DNA of 9,155 nucleotides from Nitrososphaerota archaeon. GTDB lineage: Archaea; Thermoproteota; Nitrososphaeria; Nitrososphaerales; UBA183. The stretch lies in assembly GCA_029785235.1 (NCBI GenBank), contig JAFMAA010000039.1, positions 1 to 9,155 on the forward strand, in the 5' to 3' direction. A model generated the notes under the pieces. The model saw nothing but the letters and a program-made list of their open reading frames with translations. It made no database searches and had not been told where the DNA came from. A program made the position numbers and the translations under genes. Of this stretch, positions 928 through 8,990 are shown one piece after another (the stretch's first letter is position 1; each line of letters opens with the position of its first letter).

Positions 928-3240
928 TTAGGGGTCTCGATCAAGCCCTCCGACAGATTTCCCATTTTCAAGTCTAATCACGGATGGGGTCATCTCTTCG
1001 AGCCCTCCCACATGACTGACTATGAAGATCTGAGTGAACGACTTGGAGAGACCCGTAGAGAGATATTCAATGATCCCCAACCGTCTGAGCTCGTCTGAGC
1101 TCCCGAGAGGCTCATCAAGCCAAAGAAAATCTGGGCGGATCCCCTTGGCCTCCGGGATAAGCGAGAGGACGAAGGCGAGCCTCATCGCGAGGAGGAACTG
1201 ATCGTCAGTGCCCCCGGAGAAGACATCTCTGGGACGGTACTCCCCCGCTTCCTGGTCGAAAACCTTCACCCCGAAGTCCTCGTCCAGAAGGGCCATCCTG
1301 TACCTTCCCTGAGTTAGGGAGGGGAGGATCTCCCCCATGTGCCTCTGGACCCCCGGCTTGAACCTTGCCTTGATTGCTTCGGCCGTCTGTTCGACCCCCT
1401 CCTTGGCAAGCTTTGTGACTAAGAGCTGGCGCTCGAGTTTCCCGACCAGAGCCTCCTGATGCGCCAGTCTTCCATCGATTCCCTCGTTCTCTGAAAGGAA
1501 TTCCTGGTTCTCGATGATAGCCTTCTTGTCGGATCTGACCTTCTCTTCATTCGTCGAGATCTTGCCCCGAACGTCCTCTTTGTTCTTCGAAGTGGACATC
1601 ATAAGGCCCTTCGAAAAGACAAGGCCGTCCGGGAGGGAGGGGAGCGACAGCCTGGTAGCCTCATGCCAGCAGTTCTCTATCTCTCGGGCCGTCTTCTCTT
1701 CGTCGAGCTGGCCCCTGAGGTCCTCCAAGCTGCGCTTCATCTTGTCGAGACTGTCGTCCTTGGTGCTGAAGGCGGTGGAGTCCTCACTATGTTTCTTGAC
1801 AAGTGCCATTGCCTTCTCGATGGGTGTCCCCTCTCGAGTCAGTGACCTGTAGTAAGGAATCGAAGCGATTGCACGTTCAAGCTCTCCCTCCTTCTGAACC
1901 TGTTCCTTCTCAGCGGTCTCGAGCTTGCCTTGGAGATCGGTGAGCTCCACTTGGGCGTCTCGGTACCGTCTGTACTTGGCCCCCTTTTCCTGTAGACTGA
2001 CAATCCCAGACATAGAGCTTATAGTTCTTGCTAGGAGAGCGGCGAACACGGCCCCCGCTGCGGCAAGCACCCACGGGACGATAGGGAACGCGAAGAAGTA
2101 CGACGCAGCTGCACCGATGCTTGCGACTAGGAGACCTGCGGCAGGCAACTTCGGAGACCTCTTTCTCTCAAGATTCTTCAGGACCTCCGGATCAAACCCC
2201 CCCACCTCATTTTCGAGCTGTTCAACTTCATTCTCCTTGGATTCCGCAGTTTGTTTCGCCTGTGCCACCTTGCGGGCCGCCCGGTCTGCGCTCTCCAATG
2301 CGAACGACACCCTTCCCACCTCCTCATTCGAGGGCATCCCCCGATATTGGACGAGCTCCGCCTCGAGTGCGTGGACCTTGGGCTCAAGGGATGAGACCGA
2401 TTTCCTGTGGTTGTCCAGGAGTTCCTGCTTGCTATTCGCTTCTCTGGTTAGCTCCCCCTTCTTTCTCACCGTCTCATCGTAGTCCCTCAAGGTGCCTTCA
2501 AGGTCCTGCAGCTTCGAGTATTCCGCCTCGAGGGTCGCGTTCTCCTTTGTGATACTCTTGATTTCTCCATCCAGCTCGGCGTTCTCCTTGCTGCGCTTAT
2601 GGAATTCATCCGAGATCTGCTTCAGCCGCATGAGCTCGTCCTTTGCAGTGTTGATCGTTCCAGGCCTGAGAGGTCCTCCTGTCCCCTCAAGGTCGTTTTT
2701 CTCGTCGTTGAGTTCCTTCGAGACCTCGGTGAAACTCTCAAGGTGGAGGAAGGCGTTGATTACCTTCCACCTGTCCGTTTTGGAATCGACGAGCCTCCCT
2801 AGGTCCTTCTGGGCGACCACGTTGCTGCTCAGCATCTCTTCGAAGGAGATTCCACCGAGGAGGTCCTCGACCATGCCCGTCACGTCCCTGCTCTTCGCCG
2901 CAAGTTCGCGCCATCCCCCATCTCTGACGCGCTTGTAGAGCCGTGCCCTGTTCGTTCCAGTCCGGCTGATTTCTCTCTCGACTCGGTAGAATTCCTCACC
3001 TATTTCGAACTCCAAGATTACTACGCTCCTCTTCGCTTGGTACGCCAGTAGGTCCTCGTCCTTCACGTGCCCCGGAGGCCTCGTGACTCTCCCGAAGAGG
3101 GCATAGAGGACGGCGTCAAGTATAGTAGATTTCCCCGCCTCGTTCAGTCCTGAGATGACCGTAACCCCGGGCTTGAACTTCAGCGGAGAGTCGAAGTTCA
3201 GCCTCTTGAAGTTGGTTGCGGAGAGAGAAACGAGTTTCAC
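928..3240 (-). CDS. rad50: Rad50/SbcC-like ATPase with a hydrophobic hairpin instead of a zinc hook
   Basis: Partner ATPase of Mre11 in DNA break processing. The 770-residue product has Walker A GLNEAGKST (31-39), an AQKDLG stretch in the N-terminal lobe that could supply the Q-loop, ABC signature SGGTDDQ (675-681), Walker B FLWLDEP (705-711), a D-loop-like GSSD and a switch His (SH, 742-743), so the ATPase head looks complete. The middle is charged coiled coil (about 185-360 and 415-660). Where Rad50 has a CxxC zinc hook, this protein has a strongly hydrophobic stretch (365-404) with a central F-P-I-V-P, resembling two membrane helices joined by a tight turn. The only Cys is C524, so no zinc hook is possible. 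It is shorter than most Rad50 proteins (often 850-1300 residues). Bacterial YhaN-type ATPases paired with YhaO nucleases also carry central membrane segments, making them a useful comparison. The GTG start overlaps the mre11 stop as GTGA. Confidence 0.88.
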   Translation of the reverse strand: MKLVSLSATNFKRLNFDSPLKFKPGVTVISGLNEAGKSTILDAVLYALFGRVTRPPGHVKDEDLLAYQAKRSVVILEFEIGEEFYRVEREISRTGTNRARLYKRVRDGGWRELAAKSRDVTGMVEDLLGGISFEEMLSSNVVAQKDLGRLVDSKTDRWKVINAFLHLESFTEVSKELNDEKNDLEGTGGPLRPGTINTAKDELMRLKQISDEFHKRSKENAELDGEIKSITKENATLEAEYSKLQDLEGTLRDYDETVRKKGELTREANSKQELLDNHRKSVSSLEPKVHALEAELVQYRGMPSNEEVGRVSFALESADRAARKVAQAKQTAESKENEVEQLENEVGGFDPEVLKNLERKRSPKLPAAGLLVASIGAAASYFFAFPIVPWVLAAAGAVFAALLARTISSMSGIVSLQEKGAKYRRYRDAQVELTDLQGKLETAEKEQVQKEGELERAIASIPYYRSLTREGTPIEKAMALVKKHSEDSTAFSTKDDSLDKMKRSLEDLRGQLDEEKTAREIENCWHEATRLSLPSLPDGLVFSKGLMMSTSKNKEDVRGKISTNEEKVRSDKKAIIENQEFLSENEGIDGRLAHQEALVGKLERQLLVTKLAKEGVEQTAEAIKARFKPGVQRHMGEILPSLTQGRYRMALLDEDFGVKVFDQEAGEYRPRDVFSGGTDDQFLLAMRLAFVLSLIPEAKGIRPDFLWLDEPLGSSDELRRLGIIEYLSTGLSKSFTQIFIVSHVGGLEEMTPSVIRLENGKSVGGLDRDP

Positions 3241-4391
3241 CAGGCTCCTGCCTCCTGAAGCTTTGACCGGCTGACCTGAAGGGCCTCCCTCAGGACAGCC
3301 TTCCGGTCATCGCTTGCTTCCTCAATCCTCCGTTGGAAGTAGGCGTCCAGCTCAGCGAGGGGTGTGGTGCGGGGGCCGAGATTGACCTCCGCAGGCAACT
3401 CGGCGTCGATGTCTTCGTCCACGAAGCAATGGAATACCTTCCCTTGAGCAAAGGTGATTACGTCAGCCCTCCTGTATCCTGAGAGGTTAACTGGGTCCAC
3501 TCTCCCTGAGAGCCGCACTCTAAGTATGACTTGAGGGTCGAACGACCTGGCGACCTCGCCCTTTATGACCTCAAGTGGCTTTGGGACGTTAGGAAACTGG
3601 AGCTCAACGGTCTCGTACTTCCTCGCCGAAGTAGGAATGAACTTGGTCGAGACCGAGCCGTCCTTGGAGAGCTCCGCCCAGACGAACCCCTTCTTCTCGT
3701 CCTCCTCCTCGCCTGCATCGACCCTCTCCGTGCTCCCAGGGTAGATGATCTCGGTCTTTCCGGACCTCTTCTCCTGGTGGTCGTGGAAGTGCCCCACTGC
3801 GAGTAGGTTGACCTGCGGAGGAATCGCAGAGGGCCTGATTATCGGCTCGTCCCCAGTCCACCCAGTGAACCCCTGGACCGGGGCGTGGGCAATGACGATG
3901 TTGAAGTCTCCCTCGAGGCCCTTGGGGACCGAGTCCATCGGGTCGTTCCCGAGCTCGTGCAACGGGTTGTGCCCCACCCCCGTGACGGTGACGAAGAACC
4001 CCCTGTAGTCGAGGCTAACTGTCTCGGGAGAGGTCGGGTCGCGGAAATAGTGAATGTATCCTGAATTTCCGTACACCGCAAGCGGAGAGGTCCCCTCTAA
4101 CCTACTCTTGGGGGTGTCGTGGTGCCCGCTTACAGCGAAGACCTTCACTCCCGCCTCGTGAAGGGCTCGGAAGTCTTTCATGGCCGCGGCCCTAACGTGA
4201 TTGCTCGGCCACATGTTGTCGAATAGGTCTCCGCCCATCAGGAGGATGTCTGGTTTTTCCTTCCTCGCGTAGTCCACCATCTCCTCGAAGCACTTCAGGA
4301 AGTCGTCCTTCCTCTTCCATCGGTCCAGGCCGAAGTTGTTCAGCGGAGGGTCGAGATGGTTGTCTGCTGTTATGATAGCCCGGACATTCAA
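3237..4391 (-). CDS. mre11: Mre11-type DNA repair nuclease with variant motif III
   Basis: Calcineurin-like metallophosphoesterase, the nuclease of the Mre11-Rad50 complex that trims DNA ends with two Mn ions. In the 384-residue product the motifs run D10-x-H12 (ADNHLD), GGDLFD (D55), SGHHD (89-92), IAHAP (H169) and GHFH (H201, H203), followed by IYPGSTERVD as in known Mre11 proteins. Motif III is normally GNHD, with Asn bridging the metals. Here it is GHHD (CAC CAC codons), so a metal ligand is changed from Asn to His while the catalytic His91 is kept. The C-terminal part, about 240-384, would hold the DNA-capping and Rad50-binding region and ends in a charged helix. The start is TTG at 4391, sharing TTGA with the herA stop. 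No ATG or GTG lies near, and the next residues already form the first beta strand. The rad50-like gene follows with a 4-base overlap. Confidence 0.93.
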   Translation of the reverse strand: MNVRAIITADNHLDPPLNNFGLDRWKRKDDFLKCFEEMVDYARKEKPDILLMGGDLFDNMWPSNHVRAAAMKDFRALHEAGVKVFAVSGHHDTPKSRLEGTSPLAVYGNSGYIHYFRDPTSPETVSLDYRGFFVTVTGVGHNPLHELGNDPMDSVPKGLEGDFNIVIAHAPVQGFTGWTGDEPIIRPSAIPPQVNLLAVGHFHDHQEKRSGKTEIIYPGSTERVDAGEEEDEKKGFVWAELSKDGSVSTKFIPTSARKYETVELQFPNVPKPLEVIKGEVARSFDPQVILRVRLSGRVDPVNLSGYRRADVITFAQGKVFHCFVDEDIDAELPAEVNLGPRTTPLAELDAYFQRRIEEASDDRKAVLREALQVSRSKLQEAGAW

Positions 4392-6013
4392 TCGAAGCCG
4401 CCCTTGAAAGGTTCCCTCTTCGACTTCACCCTAGCCATCTCATCGTCAATTCCAGCTGCTCTCCTGGCTTCTCCAAGCTTTCTCACGATGTCGATATCGG
4501 CTCCCCCTTCCTTTGTCACCCTCGGCCTCACCTTTACCATCACCGGGGCCCTGGTCACCTCGCCTACCACGACGCACTCACCTGGGTTGAGCCCGGGAAG
4601 GTCGTTCAGAAGGTCTTCGCTTAGCCGCTCCGAGCTGTTCTCCACGGCCATCTGGTCTTCTGGGTTGGTCAGTTTCATAATCAGCTGGCTGTTGCACTGG
4701 CTGAGGCTGTCAGGGTTCACCTTGGACGGCCTCTGAGTTATCAGGCAGAGGAAGACACCGAACTTCCTCCCTTCCGCTGCGATCTTGTTGACGATCGAGG
4801 AGGCATAGGTAGGGGTCTTGGGCGGGACAAACTTGTGCGCCTCCTCCACTACCACGAAGACTGGGAACTCACAACGACCGCTGAACGCCTCCTCGTAGGC
4901 GTCCTTCAGGATTCTGCTGGCTATGTAGTTCATCGCCCTATCATCCAGGCCTGAAAGGTCGACGATAGAGAGGTTCGATGGCTTCAGGAAGCGGTCAATC
5001 TTGGTGGTCGTCCTTCCAAAGACCCTGAGCGTGGCAAGGTCCCTGATGTACTTGGCAGCGCTTCTGGCCGAACCGCGCATTTGCCTATCTGGAACGGAAT
5101 TGCCGTCCTTGTCCTCTTTCACCGCCCACTTAGGGTCCTCCAAAGCTGCGAGAAGGTCCTCTGGGGCATTGAGGTTGTTTCCTAGGGACTCCGTCGCTAA
5201 CCTCACGGCCTCTCGGATGTTCCCCCAGTCCTGGCCAATCCCGGCTATGTTGCAGATGTCGTCGTCCGATAGGTCAGAAAAAGCCACCTCGTAGCTGACG
5301 ACACTTCCGAGGTCCTTTGCCCTGCTCGTGCTCGATGGGTTCCGGAAAATCGTTACTCGGTCAGTGAAGTCGTGCCTGCCCCCGTCCCCCTTTTGCGACA
5401 TATGGACGTAGTCGGCATGGGGATCAATCACGATGACGGTCGCCCCCTTCCTGATCAGCTCTTCAATCAGGACTCCGGCGGTGTACGACTTGCCGGCTCC
5501 TGTCTGCGCTATGATTGCCAAGTGCCTCCTGAATCCCTTGACCGACAGGGAGACTGGGACATCGGCCCGAGTGATCAACTCCCCAAGGTGCAAGCCCTCC
5601 TCCTCGGGGAAGGAATAGAATTTGGCGAGGACGTCGTCCGGCGCAATGAAGACGGTCTTTCCAGGATTTACCGCTCGCCTCGCTTGCAGTATCTTCCCAT
5701 CTGCTTCCGAGAGGAACCCGAGGACCCTGGCCTGCCCCCAGGTCCTGACATCCTCAATCTGCGCCTGGATAATCTTCTTCAGCGCTTCCATCTCCGTTCC
5801 CTTCGTGAGGGCGTCACTTACCGATGCTATCCTCTCGACCTGGGCGACGACCGGAACCTCCTCTAGCTTCTCGTTAACCAGCTCCCTTGAGTATACCACA
5901 AGGTACTCCCACTTGGGCGGGTACTCCTCATTCTTGGAAGCGAAGAAGAACTCGTTGGAGCTCGCCTCCCCGACGACTATGCCAGCCTCGGTCAGGTTAT
6001 GGGTATTTGACAC
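4388..6013 (-). CDS. herA: HerA DNA translocase (FtsK/HerA-type hexameric ATPase)
   Basis: Hexameric ring ATPase that pumps DNA and works with NurA in break resection. Numbered from the chosen start, the N-terminal HAS-like beta-barrel domain covers about 5-130, followed by Walker A AQTGAGKSYT (169-178), VIVIDPHADY (the usual family form is DPHGEY), Walker B FVVVEEAHKF (386-395) with two acidic residues, a probable arginine finger in AAEGRKFG, and ITQRPSKV (425-432), a sensor-like motif typical of HerA. The product is 541 residues, a normal length. I chose GTG at 6013 because it is preceded by AGGGGGT and gives the expected N-terminus (VSNTHNLTEAG); it overlaps nurA by 17 bases. The frame stays open upstream to 6088, but those residues are low-complexity, overlap the nurA end and are unlikely to be translated. 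Confidence 0.95.
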   Translation of the reverse strand: MSNTHNLTEAGIVVGEASSNEFFFASKNEEYPPKWEYLVVYSRELVNEKLEEVPVVAQVERIASVSDALTKGTEMEALKKIIQAQIEDVRTWGQARVLGFLSEADGKILQARRAVNPGKTVFIAPDDVLAKFYSFPEEEGLHLGELITRADVPVSLSVKGFRRHLAIIAQTGAGKSYTAGVLIEELIRKGATVIVIDPHADYVHMSQKGDGGRHDFTDRVTIFRNPSSTSRAKDLGSVVSYEVAFSDLSDDDICNIAGIGQDWGNIREAVRLATESLGNNLNAPEDLLAALEDPKWAVKEDKDGNSVPDRQMRGSARSAAKYIRDLATLRVFGRTTTKIDRFLKPSNLSIVDLSGLDDRAMNYIASRILKDAYEEAFSGRCEFPVFVVVEEAHKFVPPKTPTYASSIVNKIAAEGRKFGVFLCLITQRPSKVNPDSLSQCNSQLIMKLTNPEDQMAVENSSERLSEDLLNDLPGLNPGECVVVGEVTRAPVMVKVRPRVTKEGGADIDIVRKLGEARRAAGIDDEMARVKSKREPFKGGFD

Positions 6014-7331
6014 GCCTGTACCCCCTACTGTGGATGATTGTAAAGCCGAGCTCCCGTTGGAGGGCGGCCTCGTAGATCTTGTCCACAACTTCGTTGGTGA
6101 GCTTCACTTTCTCGTCGACCCTCTTCAGCCAGACGTTGTAGTCCTTCAACCCTCCGTATCCGCTGAGAAGGAGGCTCACGAAGGGGTTCACGTTCACCAA
6201 GAGGTCCCGCCCGCCGCTGAAATCTGAGATTGTGGTGTCCCTATTGAACGTCCAGCTTGGGGTATCGACCCTGACGGGGGTATCCCTCCTATCGAGCATC
6301 ACGTGGAAGGAAACCATGGCAGGGAACCCCGGTATCTCTGTCAGGACCTCTTTGGCCCGCCTCGTGAACGCTTCTGGGTCGGAAGCTTCCAGTAGTGCCT
6401 CCTTGAAGTGCCTCGACACGTACCCTTCGGGCCCCTCCTGAATTTCCTTCATCAGAACATAGGACCTTCTAGAAAGACTGAGTTCGATTGGGATGGTGTG
6501 CCCAGGGGAGTCGACGAAACTCCTGATAAGCTGGTGATCGGTCCGGGCAGAGAAAGCCTCCCAAAAGATCAGCTCCACCTTCCGAAGAGCATCCCCGTGC
6601 TCCCCCTTCAGCCTCTTTAGGGACGCGAAGGCCCACTCAGGTCTGTCGAAGACGTCGGGGAGAAGCCTGACAATCTCGAGCTTCGTCGCTTCAGGGATTC
6701 CAATACTCTTCAGCTCCTTCTCAAGGATCTCGTTGAGTAGATAGTCCCTCAGAAAGCTGGAACGGCTGTCCTTGCTCACCCCGAGGAGGAGGATTTCCCT
6801 TTCTTTGCAGAGAGATAGAAGTTCATTGAAAGTCTCGAAGTACTCGACCATGAACCCCCTCATCCCCTCTGCCGGAGAGTCCCGAGGCAAGTGGACCATT
6901 CTTCCGAAGAGGGACCCGTCGATGAGTACCGCTGCGTTCGAGATGTTCCCCTCCTGAATGGCCTTGATTGCGGCGGCAAATTCCGACCACTCCATTTTCC
7001 TGGTTATGAAGGTCTGGATGTCGGTCGACTTCCCCTTGCTCATGAAGGCATCTACTTCGAGAGTCCGGAATGATTTTCCTCGAGTGATTGCCAAAGCTCT
7101 AGCCACGTAGAAGACAGCCCCGGAGGCATAGGGTCTGATTCCCCTGCTCCCGTCGACCGCGACTATTTCCTTGTCTGGAGGGGCCACTTCCACGACAGGG
7201 TGCCAGTGCCTGAGGAGTGCTTCCCCCAGCTCAGAATCTAGCTCCGACTTCCTTCCATGGACGATCTTGTCTCTCAGAGAATCCCTCTTCGCTCTGACCT
7301 GGCCTATCAGTTCATCTAGATATTCTGGAAT
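5997..7331 (-). CDS. nurA: NurA 5'-3' nuclease, start codon unclear (ATT proposed)
   Basis: Nuclease partner of HerA that degrades DNA at breaks. Numbering from the proposed start, the RNase H-like fold shows IVAVDGSRG (D60, metal ligand), AAVLIDGSLFG (D138), GVSKDSR (K187), and a C-terminal IIHSRG (H434), all typical of the family. The first NTG start is GTG at 7193, which would leave only 13 residues before the catalytic Asp; archaeal NurA usually has around 50. The frame is open back to a TGA at 7338-7340, and the extra residues (for example YLDELIGQVRAKRDSLRDK) look like a genuine NurA N-terminal helix. No ATG, GTG or TTG exists there. An ATT at 7331 lies six bases after GGTGGTGA, a strong ribosome-binding-like match, so I use it (444 residues). 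Alternatives are GTG 7193, another non-standard start, or read-through from the preceding small ORF, which is in the same frame. Confidence 0.9.
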   Translation of the reverse strand: MPEYLDELIGQVRAKRDSLRDKIVHGRKSELDSELGEALLRHWHPVVEVAPPDKEIVAVDGSRGIRPYASGAVFYVARALAITRGKSFRTLEVDAFMSKGKSTDIQTFITRKMEWSEFAAAIKAIQEGNISNAAVLIDGSLFGRMVHLPRDSPAEGMRGFMVEYFETFNELLSLCKEREILLLGVSKDSRSSFLRDYLLNEILEKELKSIGIPEATKLEIVRLLPDVFDRPEWAFASLKRLKGEHGDALRKVELIFWEAFSARTDHQLIRSFVDSPGHTIPIELSLSRRSYVLMKEIQEGPEGYVSRHFKEALLEASDPEAFTRRAKEVLTEIPGFPAMVSFHVMLDRRDTPVRVDTPSWTFNRDTTISDFSGGRDLLVNVNPFVSLLLSGYGGLKDYNVWLKRVDEKVKLTNEVVDKIYEAALQRELGFTIIHSRGYRRVKYP

Positions 7332-7583: not shown

Positions 7584-8138
7584 TCAGTCAAGACGACGAT
7601 ACTCGCAACTCAGACAGAACGCGCCTGCAGGGAAGAACCTGTGTCCATGATCTTGTGCTCTCTTCTGGACGTAGAGTGTAACGAGGGTTCTCTGTGCATC
7701 TTTTGGGCAGGAGCCGAGGCGCCTTCCACTCAGGGACTCGAAAGCCATCTCAGTGGCATCCCTGAGCGCTTCCGCCACAGTCCCGTTAGCTTTCAGGTAC
7801 TCCAGTGCCGTCTTCACCTCAGACTTGAAGACGTGGCTGGTCTCGGGAGTCCTGTTCCGTCTCAGGTCCGCCAAGAGTTGGTTGAAGGCGAGAGGTCCCT
7901 TCCCCAGGGCTCTGACGATTGCACCCCTGGATGCCGAAGGGAGAGCTGAGGATGGAAGCGCCAGGCTATATTCCTGGACGACGACATGGCTCGGTGTCTG
8001 GCACCTTGTGCAGGCCCAGAGGAGCGGGATCCACCTTCGCCTGCCATCGAGTGTCACCTGGGCGTAGAAGGTCCTGTGATGGGTCATGACGTGACAGCAG
8101 GGGCAGTAGCGGCTCTTCAGCCCGAGGAGTTTGGGCAT
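7584..8138 (-). CDS. Hypothetical protein with zinc-binding cysteines at both ends
   Basis: Not recognised as a named family. The 184-residue product begins with a zinc-ribbon-like arrangement: CPCC (12-15) and CTRC (43-46) flank a short aromatic/basic segment. A central helical region, about 68-130 (GAIVRALGKGPLAFNQLL, then SEVKTALEYLKANGTV), has the look of a winged-helix DNA-binding domain: GPLAFNQLLADL would be its second helix and VKTALEYLKANGTV its recognition helix. The C-terminal end has C144, H164, H166 and CLSC (175-178), a possible second metal site. A role in DNA or RNA binding, perhaps regulation, is inferred from this architecture only. The ATG at 8138 follows the ArdC-like gene by 21 bases, so the two are probably co-transcribed. 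A T-tract follows the stop. Confidence 0.75.
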   Translation of the reverse strand: MPKLLGLKSRYCPCCHVMTHHRTFYAQVTLDGRRRWIPLLWACTRCQTPSHVVVQEYSLALPSSALPSASRGAIVRALGKGPLAFNQLLADLRRNRTPETSHVFKSEVKTALEYLKANGTVAEALRDATEMAFESLSGRRLGSCPKDAQRTLVTLYVQKRAQDHGHRFFPAGAFCLSCEYRRLD

Positions 8139-8159: not shown

Positions 8160-8990
8160 CTATAACGGGGCTGAGAGGTAGACCAGGTCCAGGACCTTCT
8201 TCGCCCTGTCAAGGACGCGCATGCAGACGCGCCCTACCTGCTGCGGGGAGCTAGATTGCGCCTGGCTTGCGATGTAGGTCCATGAGAAGCCGTCGGCTGG
8301 CCTTCCATACACCCGGGAAAGGGTCGCGGCCACCAGTTGCGCGATGGTCTCGGCTTCGGGCTCCTGCCCGTGCCCTGTCTTTGGCTCGAAGGACCTGTGG
8401 ATGGCATGGGCGAGCTCGTGGAAGAAGACCGTCCAGTCTTCTGTGGCCAGGGTGATGATGCTCCTTTCGTAGTCGGTGAGGCCGTAGATCCCGGCAGAAA
8501 GGCGGAGGTAGTTCACCTTCATCCCGAACCGCTCGGCTAGATCTAGGAGAGGGGGAGGGTCCCTGGGCTTGTAGATCGGGAGTTCCGCCCCCTCCGTGTC
8601 CTCGTATCTGAAGACGGGGATTGCCCTGAACCCGACAAGGACGTCAACCTCTTCCTTGGAGCCGTCGCCTTCGAGGTTCTTCTTGACGAAGACAGGCCCA
8701 AGGATCCTGAACGCCCTGGCACCAGCCTTGACTTGGCGCCCGACGTCCTGCCACTGCCTGTATCCGCGTGCGTCCATTGTCCCTGCCAGGAGCACGAGGA
8801 GCTGGTTCCCGAGGGACCACTTCGAGGAGGGTTTCTCCGGTGCGTTGATCAGGGCGGCTGCGCACAGGTCCGGGAGCTGTGTCGTGGAGAAGAGCCGGAT
8901 TATCTTGTCCAGCTCGACGTTGGCGCGCTCCCTCCATGAGGCCTTTGGTTCCTGGTCTACAGCTTGCGCTGGGTTTTCTGTCGCTTGCAT
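8160..8990 (-). CDS. ArdC-like protein: N-terminal ssDNA-binding-type domain plus HELAH metallopeptidase
   Basis: The 276-residue product matches the ArdC antirestriction layout. Residues about 18-130 resemble the ArdC N-terminal (DUF1738-type) domain: an early helix, a GNQLLVLLAG stretch, then DARGYRQWQDVGRQVKAGA and a strand-rich FRILGPVFV. The C-terminal part is a zincin of IrrE/ImmA type, with HELAH (191-195) supplying two zinc ligands and the catalytic Glu192, and E214 in EAETIAQLVA as the probable third ligand. ArdC proteins are mostly plasmid- or phage-borne, bind single-stranded DNA and protect incoming DNA from restriction. In a cellular archaeal setting the role could differ, for example proteolytic control of a DNA-bound partner. 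The ATG at 8990 follows the preceding gene's stop by 18 bases, with AGGGG just upstream as a plausible ribosome-binding site. Confidence is good for the metallopeptidase and fair for the ArdC label. Confidence 0.82.
   Translation of the reverse strand: MQATENPAQAVDQEPKASWRERANVELDKIIRLFSTTQLPDLCAAALINAPEKPSSKWSLGNQLLVLLAGTMDARGYRQWQDVGRQVKAGARAFRILGPVFVKKNLEGDGSKEEVDVLVGFRAIPVFRYEDTEGAELPIYKPRDPPPLLDLAERFGMKVNYLRLSAGIYGLTDYERSIITLATEDWTVFFHELAHAIHRSFEPKTGHGQEPEAETIAQLVAATLSRVYGRPADGFSWTYIASQAQSSSPQQVGRVCMRVLDRAKKVLDLVYLSAPL

What the first reader, a model, noticed from the sequence alone, without database searches (positions are those of the whole stretch)
1980..2160. Rad50-like ATPase with a membrane-type hairpin in place of the zinc hook
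Residues 365-404 are almost entirely hydrophobic with a central F-P-I-V-P turn, positioned between two coiled-coil arms exactly where archaeal Rad50 has its CxxC hook. The protein has one Cys in 770 residues, so hook dimerisation is excluded. The ATPase motifs are intact and the gene sits in the standard mre11-rad50-herA-nurA set. Two such arms joined in a membrane would be a different way to tether DNA ends. Bacterial YhaN-type proteins with central membrane segments are the nearest known idea; finding this in the archaeal operon is striking.
Basis: partly seen in the sequence, partly recalled or inferred. Interest (0 to 1): 0.8.

Follow-up and report, generated by a model that had tools for sequence, protein, structure and literature searches.

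The report
Membrane-anchored archaeal Rad50 DNA-repair ATPase
Several groups of archaea carry a version of the DNA-break repair protein Rad50 in which the usual zinc clasp at the tip of its long arms is replaced by two helices that look built to sit in the cell membrane, which suggests that broken DNA may be held and trimmed at the membrane.

Summary
The 770-aa gene at 928-3240(-) is a Rad50-type ATPase whose apex (residues 365-404, nt 2029-2148) is a 40-residue stretch without D/E/K/R/N/Q/H, and it has no CxxC. It is no local oddity: the 120 listed family members (own protein included) all carry the hairpin, none CxxC. Over 300 listed proteins from three searches the two features nearly exclude each other (244 hairpin only, 54 CxxC only, 1 both, 1 neither). 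Trees of the ATPase heads, apex left out, separate sampled hairpin from sampled hook proteins by one branch; Mre11, HerA and NurA of the same loci split alike. Named carriers include Thermofilum pendens, Caldarchaeum, Bathyarchaeia and Nitrososphaerales MAGs. A source-named YhaN protein falls on the hairpin side; B. subtilis YhaN is SbcE, reported in break repair. Best reading: an Mre11-Rad50 anchored in the membrane, often within a nurA-herA-mre11-rad50 module parallel to the zinc-hook one; many Bathyarchaeota loci have only mre11 beside it. Insertion, hairpin pairing and tethering are inferred, not shown. Ten searches of an open library, which omits most subscription journals, gave no paper describing it.

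The parts
928..3240 (-). Membrane-type Rad50 (770 aa): ABC/SMC-type ATPase with apex hairpin in place of the zinc hook; its GTG start overlaps the mre11 stop (GTGA)
   Evidence: overlap read from the sequence
2029..2148 (-). Apex hydrophobic hairpin, residues 365-404; model helices 364-382 and 388 onward, turn F-P-I-V-P-W
3124..3150 (-). Walker A, GLNEAGKST, residues 31-39
   Evidence: G31, N33, E34, G36, K37, S38 invariant
1207..1221 (-). ABC signature FSGGT, residues 674-678
   Evidence: S675 G676 G677 invariant
1108..1128 (-). Walker B, FLWLDEP, residues 705-711
   Evidence: D709 E710 invariant
2203..2658 (-). Ascending coiled-coil arm, residues about 195-346
   Evidence: helices 195-299 and 305-346 in the model
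1315..2028 (-). Descending coiled-coil arm, residues about 405-642 (the second hairpin helix runs on into it)
   Evidence: model helix 388-459 and following helices
3237..4391 (-). mre11-type nuclease; D-x-H, GDLFD and GHFH motifs present, GHHD where many relatives read GNHD
4388..6088 (-). herA helicase (listed TTG start is probably too far upstream; matches to L001, L002 and L011 begin at residues 19-20)
5997..7193 (-). nurA nuclease (frame open to 7337, so the true start may lie upstream)

Best explanation
The gene is the Rad50 subunit of an archaeal Mre11-Rad50 complex whose arms end in a two-helix membrane anchor instead of a zinc hook. ATP-binding heads and Mre11 nuclease lie in the cytoplasm; two coiled-coil arms (about 150 and 240 residues in the model) reach to the inner face of the membrane, where a tight hairpin, both ends inside, inserts. 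In an M2R2 complex the two hairpins would sit side by side in the membrane and close the ring at the apex, the job that dimerised hooks do elsewhere, while confinement to the membrane brings complexes that hold different DNA ends together. HerA-NurA from the same operon would then resect the ends. Shown here: ATPase motifs, hairpin, its conservation, absence of CxxC, operon partners, and parallel splits of the four gene trees. Inferred: insertion in the membrane, pairing of hairpins, DNA tethering, repair function.
For: Hairpin columns 365-404 over 48 aligned sequences: mean hydropathy 2.07, polar/charged letters 0.9%, majority identity only 0.45, net charge +1.9 and +2.0 in the 20 residues before and after. 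Insertion energy on a recalled scale: the two helices sum to between -3.8 and 4.1 kcal/mol in the 120 listed family members, against 13.4 to 32.4 in 54 hook proteins at their most hydrophobic place. Small-xxx-small pairs exceed shuffles (236 against 201, 3.7 SD, related sequences not corrected for). AlphaFold2 places the hairpin at the coiled-coil apex; the best PDB match of the model is a chain of the Chaetomium Mre11-Rad50-Nbs1 complex. Mre11 directly upstream in 25 of 26 loci of the close family, the exception being cut at its edge. One-branch split hairpin/hook for Rad50 heads (62 against 52 rows, support 98; 40 against 33 rows with a mixture model, 100/94), Mre11 (30 against 18, 100/100), HerA (17 against 15, 100/99) and NurA (16 against 13, 96/93).
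Against: The window protein's own hairpin is alanine/glycine-rich and marginal: 1.8 and 1.5 kcal/mol, sum 3.3, near the unfavourable end of the 120 (75th percentile 0.8, maximum 4.1). Hairpin confidence in the models is modest: pLDDT about 60-76 in the window protein, about 71-82 in Thermofilum. pTM is 0.49 in both, and the best PDB match has TM-score 0.43, so arm geometry is not reliable. herA lies near mre11 in only 5 of 26 close-family loci; in 12 others at least 4 kb upstream of mre11 was held and no herA or nurA was found. The parallel splits of four genes may largely reflect species descent, since they travel together. No experiment shows membrane location.
Confidence: 0.75

Rival explanations
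1. The apex hairpin is a water-soluble hydrophobic dimerisation module: two hairpins from two Rad50 copies bury each other as a four-helix bundle in the cytosol, replacing the hook without any membrane.
For: A hook can be swapped for another dimerisation module: yeast Rad50 with the MukB hinge works (PMC6969161, start of abstract and passages seen). The window's own helices are marginal for insertion and small-xxx-small pairs are enriched, which also fits a tight bundle.
Against: There is no polar face: 0.9% polar or charged letters over 40 columns in 48 sequences; a soluble bundle would be expected to keep one. Two stretches of about 18-20 residues with net positive flanks on both sides fit an in-out-in hairpin.
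Confidence: 0.15
2. The module is not mainly for chromosomal break repair but works on DNA that enters or leaves across the membrane (uptake, conjugation, or destruction of foreign DNA); the anchor places the nuclease next to the entry site.
For: B. subtilis SbcE (YhaN) is reported in break repair and competence (title only, seen in a reference list). In some Thermoproteales rad50 and herA lie beside DNA-import genes (passages of PMC9905601); I did not test which Rad50 type those are. Profile matches to defence ATPases, best LmuB: 85 bits over residues 14-748 of the window protein and 120 bits for Thermofilum, against 110 bits for the best Rad50 model on the window protein.
Against: The gene sits in the nurA-herA-mre11 set that in other archaea serves break repair. 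No hook Rad50 turned up in 14 of 17 carrier genomes in the matches I followed, so this copy would have to cover the housekeeping role there. Mre11 and NurA match no defence model. That the LmuB match reflects the shared head and coiled-coil plan is my inference.
Confidence: 0.25
3. A one-off artefact: a frame error or a degenerate hook turned hydrophobic in one metagenome contig.
For: No genome is held for the window and its protein is known from one contig.
Against: The other 119 listed family members share the feature, and so does Thermofilum pendens on a contig of 1.8 Mb.
Confidence: 0.01

Closest known systems
Archaeal Rad50 with zinc hook (Mre11-Rad50; Pyrococcus, Methanocaldococcus, Sulfolobus)
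   Same: ABC heads with the same motifs, antiparallel coiled coil, mre11 next door, often herA and nurA
   Different: CxxC hook at the apex in place of the hydrophobic hairpin; other side of the Rad50, Mre11, HerA and NurA trees; another gene order in 12 of 13 hook loci with all four genes
Bacterial SbcE / YhaN
   Same: A protein so named by its source has a central hydrophobic segment, no CxxC, an AAA_27 match, and lies on the hairpin side (P0214)
   Different: Longer (937 aa) and on a separate branch within the hairpin side; gene neighbours not examined here. I had no sequence of B. subtilis YhaN itself
ASRP / coalescin (archaea-specific SMC-related proteins)
   Same: SMC-type ATPase of archaea; 54-bit match to the NCBIfam model
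   Different: Vast majority carry a zinc hook (PMC9389158, passages seen); far below the 300-bit cut-off
SMC, MukB and Wadjet/Lamassu ATPases
   Same: Head and coiled-coil plan; LmuB (Lamassu) model matches at 85 bits
   Different: Hinge or other apex (recalled); no mre11 partner gene of this type (recalled)

Membership tests
Rad50 (zinc-hook Mre11-Rad50 complex) | ABC ATPase heads: Walker A, Q-loop, signature, Walker B, H-loop | tested here: met
   key residues invariant or nearly invariant in the 48-row alignment; Rad50 heads are the best PDB sequence matches
Rad50 (zinc-hook Mre11-Rad50 complex) | CxxC zinc hook at the coiled-coil apex | tested here: not met
   no CxxC, one Cys; none in the 120 listed family members
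Rad50 (zinc-hook Mre11-Rad50 complex) | Mre11 partner gene adjacent | tested here: met
   adjacent in 25 of 26 related loci
Rad50 (zinc-hook Mre11-Rad50 complex) | NCBIfam Rad50 equivalog cut-off | tested here: not met
   NF003034 110 bits against 700; the other Rad50 models score lower
Rad50 (zinc-hook Mre11-Rad50 complex) | Groups with hook Rad50 in a tree of heads | tested here: not met
   other side of one branch, (unrooted)
SbcE / YhaN type (membrane apex) | Central hydrophobic segments in the coiled coil, no hook | tested here: met
SbcE / YhaN type (membrane apex) | Pfam AAA_27 above cut-off | tested here: met
   25.2 bits against 22; narrowly missed by Thermofilum (21.9) and Caldarchaeum (21.6) relatives
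SbcE / YhaN type (membrane apex) | Close grouping with a YhaN-named protein in a tree | tested here: not met
   same side, different branch: the YhaN-named row groups with P0221, P0230 and P0188, then with the short proteins L031-L034
SbcE / YhaN type (membrane apex) | Shown membrane location | not testable with these tools
   needs fractionation or imaging
nurA-herA-mre11-rad50 operon | All four genes together on one strand | tested here: met

The most novel reading that the evidence does not exclude
Rad50 has two ancient forms, hook and membrane, each with its own co-inherited Mre11, and in several archaeal groups (Bathyarchaeia, Caldarchaeum and kin, Thermofilum and kin, some Nitrososphaerales and Asgard-labelled genomes) DNA-end resection by Mre11-Rad50 and NurA-HerA takes place at the cell membrane, with hairpin pairing in the lipid layer closing the Mre11-Rad50 ring in place of zinc.
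Probability: 0.4. Interest if true: 0.9.

Novelty: new variant of a known kind. Interest (0 to 1): 0.75.

Why it matters
Rad50's hook is described as highly conserved through evolution, and as mainly a dimerisation module (PMC6969161, passages seen). A whole clade of Mre11-Rad50 systems with a membrane-type hairpin instead, and with no hook Rad50 found in most carrier genomes followed (14 of 17), would give a natural experiment on what the apex is for, would place archaeal break repair at a defined cell site, and would tie an archaeal repair operon to the bacterial SbcE/YhaN proteins. It is directly testable by expression in a laboratory host.

Tried and rejected
The first genome-contig scan with the single protein found no relative; an alignment as query did. 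The viral-contig scan found none. Hydropathy of one window alone was dropped as proof, since shuffles reach it. A first insertion-energy scan that sought a second helix only outside the single best segment gave a poor second helix (mean 3.6 kcal/mol, under 2 in 36% of 120); it was replaced by joint choice of two helices. Defence function was considered because of LmuB, mad3 and PbeC matches; kept inside rival 2. Frame error or degenerate hook was rejected by the homologues. Whether hook or hairpin is ancestral was left open: the trees are rooted at the midpoint for drawing only.

Results that weaken the picture. PF04423 (zinc hook) as a census tool is insensitive: it rang in only 4 of 14 control genomes, so its absence is weak evidence, and some of its matches lie in short frames that are no Rad50. 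In one search I computed a test with 1 of 20 carriers over the PF04423 cut-off; the match list is cut, and the rows of four more carriers (G011, G062, G186, G247) are not shown, so that count is only a lower bound and I do not rest on it. Some carriers seem to have a hook Rad50 as well: G011 (CPLC, 875 aa, with mre11), a contig-end fragment with CPIC in G013, a 665-aa frame with CPRC in G017, and G192, which holds a complete hook operon and a complete hairpin operon; completeness and contamination are not given for these genomes, so mis-binning is possible. Eight of the 16 secondary regions held another SMC-like frame without CxxC that I did not identify. No mre11 was found by my profile near L027-L030.

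Rows dropped: the tree used 118 of 125 chosen sequences (L015 lacked a P-loop by my pattern; P0172, P0196, P0208, P0211, P0216 and L069 lacked a recognisable signature); only 19 of the 120 close-family proteins were put in, as representatives. One search, an earlier and stricter selection, dropped 23 and built no tree. One search left out 21 loci by a list made by hand (loci re-fetched from the same genes, and loci judged near-copies or partial), and loci without both genes. One search used only a chosen set of loci with enough flank. One search fetched 16 regions chosen from the secondary matches, not all of them; two of the 16 (L075, L076) turned out to be the hairpin gene again.

Full report
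What is in the window. Five genes lie head to tail on the minus strand: nurA (5997-7193), herA (4388-6088), mre11 (3237-4391), the Rad50-like gene (928-3240) and TBP (361-891); assignments are from Pfam and NCBIfam. Stop and start codons overlap between mre11 and the Rad50 gene (GTGA) and between herA and mre11 (TTGA), as read from the sequence, which suggests translational coupling. The 770-aa protein has the Rad50 ATPase motifs, and its best solved relatives by sequence are Rad50 heads.

The apex. Residues 365-404 contain no D, E, K, R, N, Q or H; there is one Cys (524) and no CxxC. A run of 40 exceeds anything in 3000 shuffles (maximum 25). In 48 aligned sequences (relatives 34-87% identical to the window protein) these columns have mean hydropathy 2.07 and 0.9% polar or charged letters, although majority identity is only 0.45, and both flanks carry net charge of about +2. 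This pattern, hydrophobicity kept while letters change, with positive flanks, is that of a membrane hairpin. With a recalled insertion-energy scale, the 120 listed family members all have two adjacent helices whose energies sum to between -3.8 and 4.1 kcal/mol, while 54 hook proteins give 13.4 to 32.4 at their most hydrophobic place. The window's own pair (1.8 and 1.5) is near the weak end. AlphaFold2 puts a helical hairpin at the tip of the coiled coil in the window protein (mean pLDDT 81, hairpin blocks about 60-76, pTM 0.49) and in Thermofilum pendens (mean 83.8, hairpin blocks about 71-82, pTM 0.49). The best PDB match of the window model is a chain of the Chaetomium Mre11-Rad50-Nbs1 complex (E 7.5e-23, TM-score 0.43); that it is the Rad50 chain I infer.

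Conservation and exclusivity. Of 231 matches to the window protein 120 were listed, the window's own among them; all 120 have the stretch and none has CxxC. Three searches, each cut at 120 listed, together gave 300 different proteins: 244 with a central hairpin and no central CxxC, 54 with CxxC and no hairpin, one with both (P0259, a CIAC at 460, outside the hairpin), and one with neither (P0194). All three searches started from hairpin proteins, so the proportions say nothing about abundance, but the near absence of both-or-neither suggests that the hairpin stands in for the hook. Named members: Nitrososphaerales and Bathyarchaeia MAGs, Thermofilum pendens, T. adornatum and Infirmifilum, Caldarchaeum and Calditenuaceae HR02, the latter deposited as a putative Rad50 ATPase, and loci labelled Asgard group and Njordarchaeum. 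A few MAGs with bacterial labels also carry close members (Angelobacter; Acidoferrum; 'bacterium' L016); whether these are true or mis-binned I cannot tell. More distant hairpin relatives: 575-583-aa proteins beside mre11 in an uncultured archaeon, Methanoperedens, Pacearchaeota and Nanoarchaeota (L031-L034), 624-639-aa proteins in Leucothrix and relatives (L027-L030), and a Chloroflexota-named protein of 1267 aa (P0178).

Two sides, four genes. A tree of ATPase heads with the apex left out (118 of 125 chosen sequences) puts all 62 hairpin rows on one side of a single branch and all 52 hook rows, with 4 rows that have neither, on the other (support 98). A second tree with a mixture model (74 rows: 40 hairpin, 33 hook, 1 neither) gives the same branch at 100/94 and in all of 200 bootstrap trees. 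A protein its source names YhaN lies on the hairpin side, on a separate branch. Mre11 from the same loci splits on the same line (30 hairpin-linked against 18 hook-linked and 2 linked to neither, 100/100), and so do HerA (17 against 15, 100/99) and NurA (16 against 13, 96/93). Gene order differs too: of hairpin loci with all four genes, 16 of 17 read nurA-herA-mre11-rad50, against 1 of 13 hook loci. Against a strict four-gene module: of 26 close-family loci, mre11 is adjacent in 25 but herA is found in only 5 and nurA in 4; in 12 others, mostly labelled Bathyarchaeota, at least 4 kb upstream of mre11 was held without either. Part of the agreement between trees is expected if the genes simply descend together within lineages; the genome G192, where each type occurs with its own partners, argues for two true modules unless that bin is mixed.

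Is it the only Rad50 of its carriers? In 17 genomes reached through hairpin loci, the 16 secondary regions I followed showed one full-length hook Rad50 with mre11 (G011), one hook-bearing fragment at a contig end (G013) and one 665-aa frame with CPRC (G017); in the other 14 no hook frame turned up, though not every secondary match was followed. Eight of the 16 regions held another SMC-like frame with an SGGER signature and no CxxC, not identified; G004 also has a Rad50-like protein beside mre11 with neither hook nor hairpin. Among 299 genomes of the phylum of G001, 20 matched the family at E up to 1e-60 (55 at 1e-24, the added ones being weaker partial matches). The hook model matched at E up to 0.01 in 5 of these 20 against 203 of the other 279 (Fisher p 2.7e-5). 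The hook model is insensitive (4 of 14 controls) and also rings in short frames, so this is a trend and not proof of absence.

How it likely works. Heads and Mre11 process DNA ends in the cytoplasm; the arms reach to the membrane, where the hairpin inserts with both ends inside. Two hairpins of one complex, rich in small-xxx-small spacing (236 against 201 expected, 3.7 SD, relatedness not corrected for), could pair and close the ring as hooks do. Yeast Rad50 with a foreign hinge in place of the hook still works (PMC6969161, start of abstract and passages), so another apex that dimerises could serve. Insertion, pairing and tethering are inferred. The main rival for the apex is a soluble hydrophobic bundle, made less likely by the lack of any polar face. 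A second rival keeps the anchor but gives it a role at DNA entry or defence, prompted by the reported competence role of B. subtilis SbcE (YhaN) (title only) and by an LmuB match of 85 bits.

Literature. Ten searches of the open library listed no paper that, by title and abstract start, describes a membrane-type apex in Rad50 or in an archaeal herA-nurA operon. I opened passages of four papers. The library omits most subscription journals; the SbcE paper and the herA-nurA operon paper were not held, so prior mention there cannot be excluded. The survey of archaeal SMC-related proteins (PMC9389158, passages) has no occurrence of 'transmembrane', 'Thermofilum' or 'Bathyarchaeota' in its main text.

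Verdict.

Noticed in passing
window 3237-4391: Mre11 here and in the other window-type loci examined (and L048) reads GHHD, where the remaining hairpin-linked Mre11 read GNHD; the position aligns with N of GNHE in a solved Mre11, so a metal-site residue (recalled) may be changed.
   Followed up: partly
window 8160-8990: 276-aa gene with a weak match to the N-terminal domain of anti-restriction factor ArdC (19.2 bits, under the 22.6 cut-off) and an HELAHAIH motif of metallopeptidase type.
   Followed up: no
window 7584-8138: 184-aa ORF with CPCC and CxxC pairs like a zinc ribbon, no Pfam match.
   Followed up: no
L127 and L135 (both genome G192): One genome bin holds a complete zinc-hook operon and a complete hairpin operon; either both forms coexist or the bin is mixed.
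   Followed up: partly
L140 (genome G241): Hairpin-type module with another gene order (mre11-rad50-nurA-herA) and very long branches for HerA and NurA.
   Followed up: no
L031-L034: Short (575-583 aa) hairpin-type proteins directly after an mre11 gene in an uncultured archaeon, Methanoperedens, Pacearchaeota and Nanoarchaeota contigs, on a branch with the YhaN-named protein.
   Followed up: partly
L037 / L071 (genome G004): A 778-aa Rad50-like protein beside mre11 with neither hook nor hairpin, in the same genome as a hairpin-type Rad50.
   Followed up: no
   Followed up: partly
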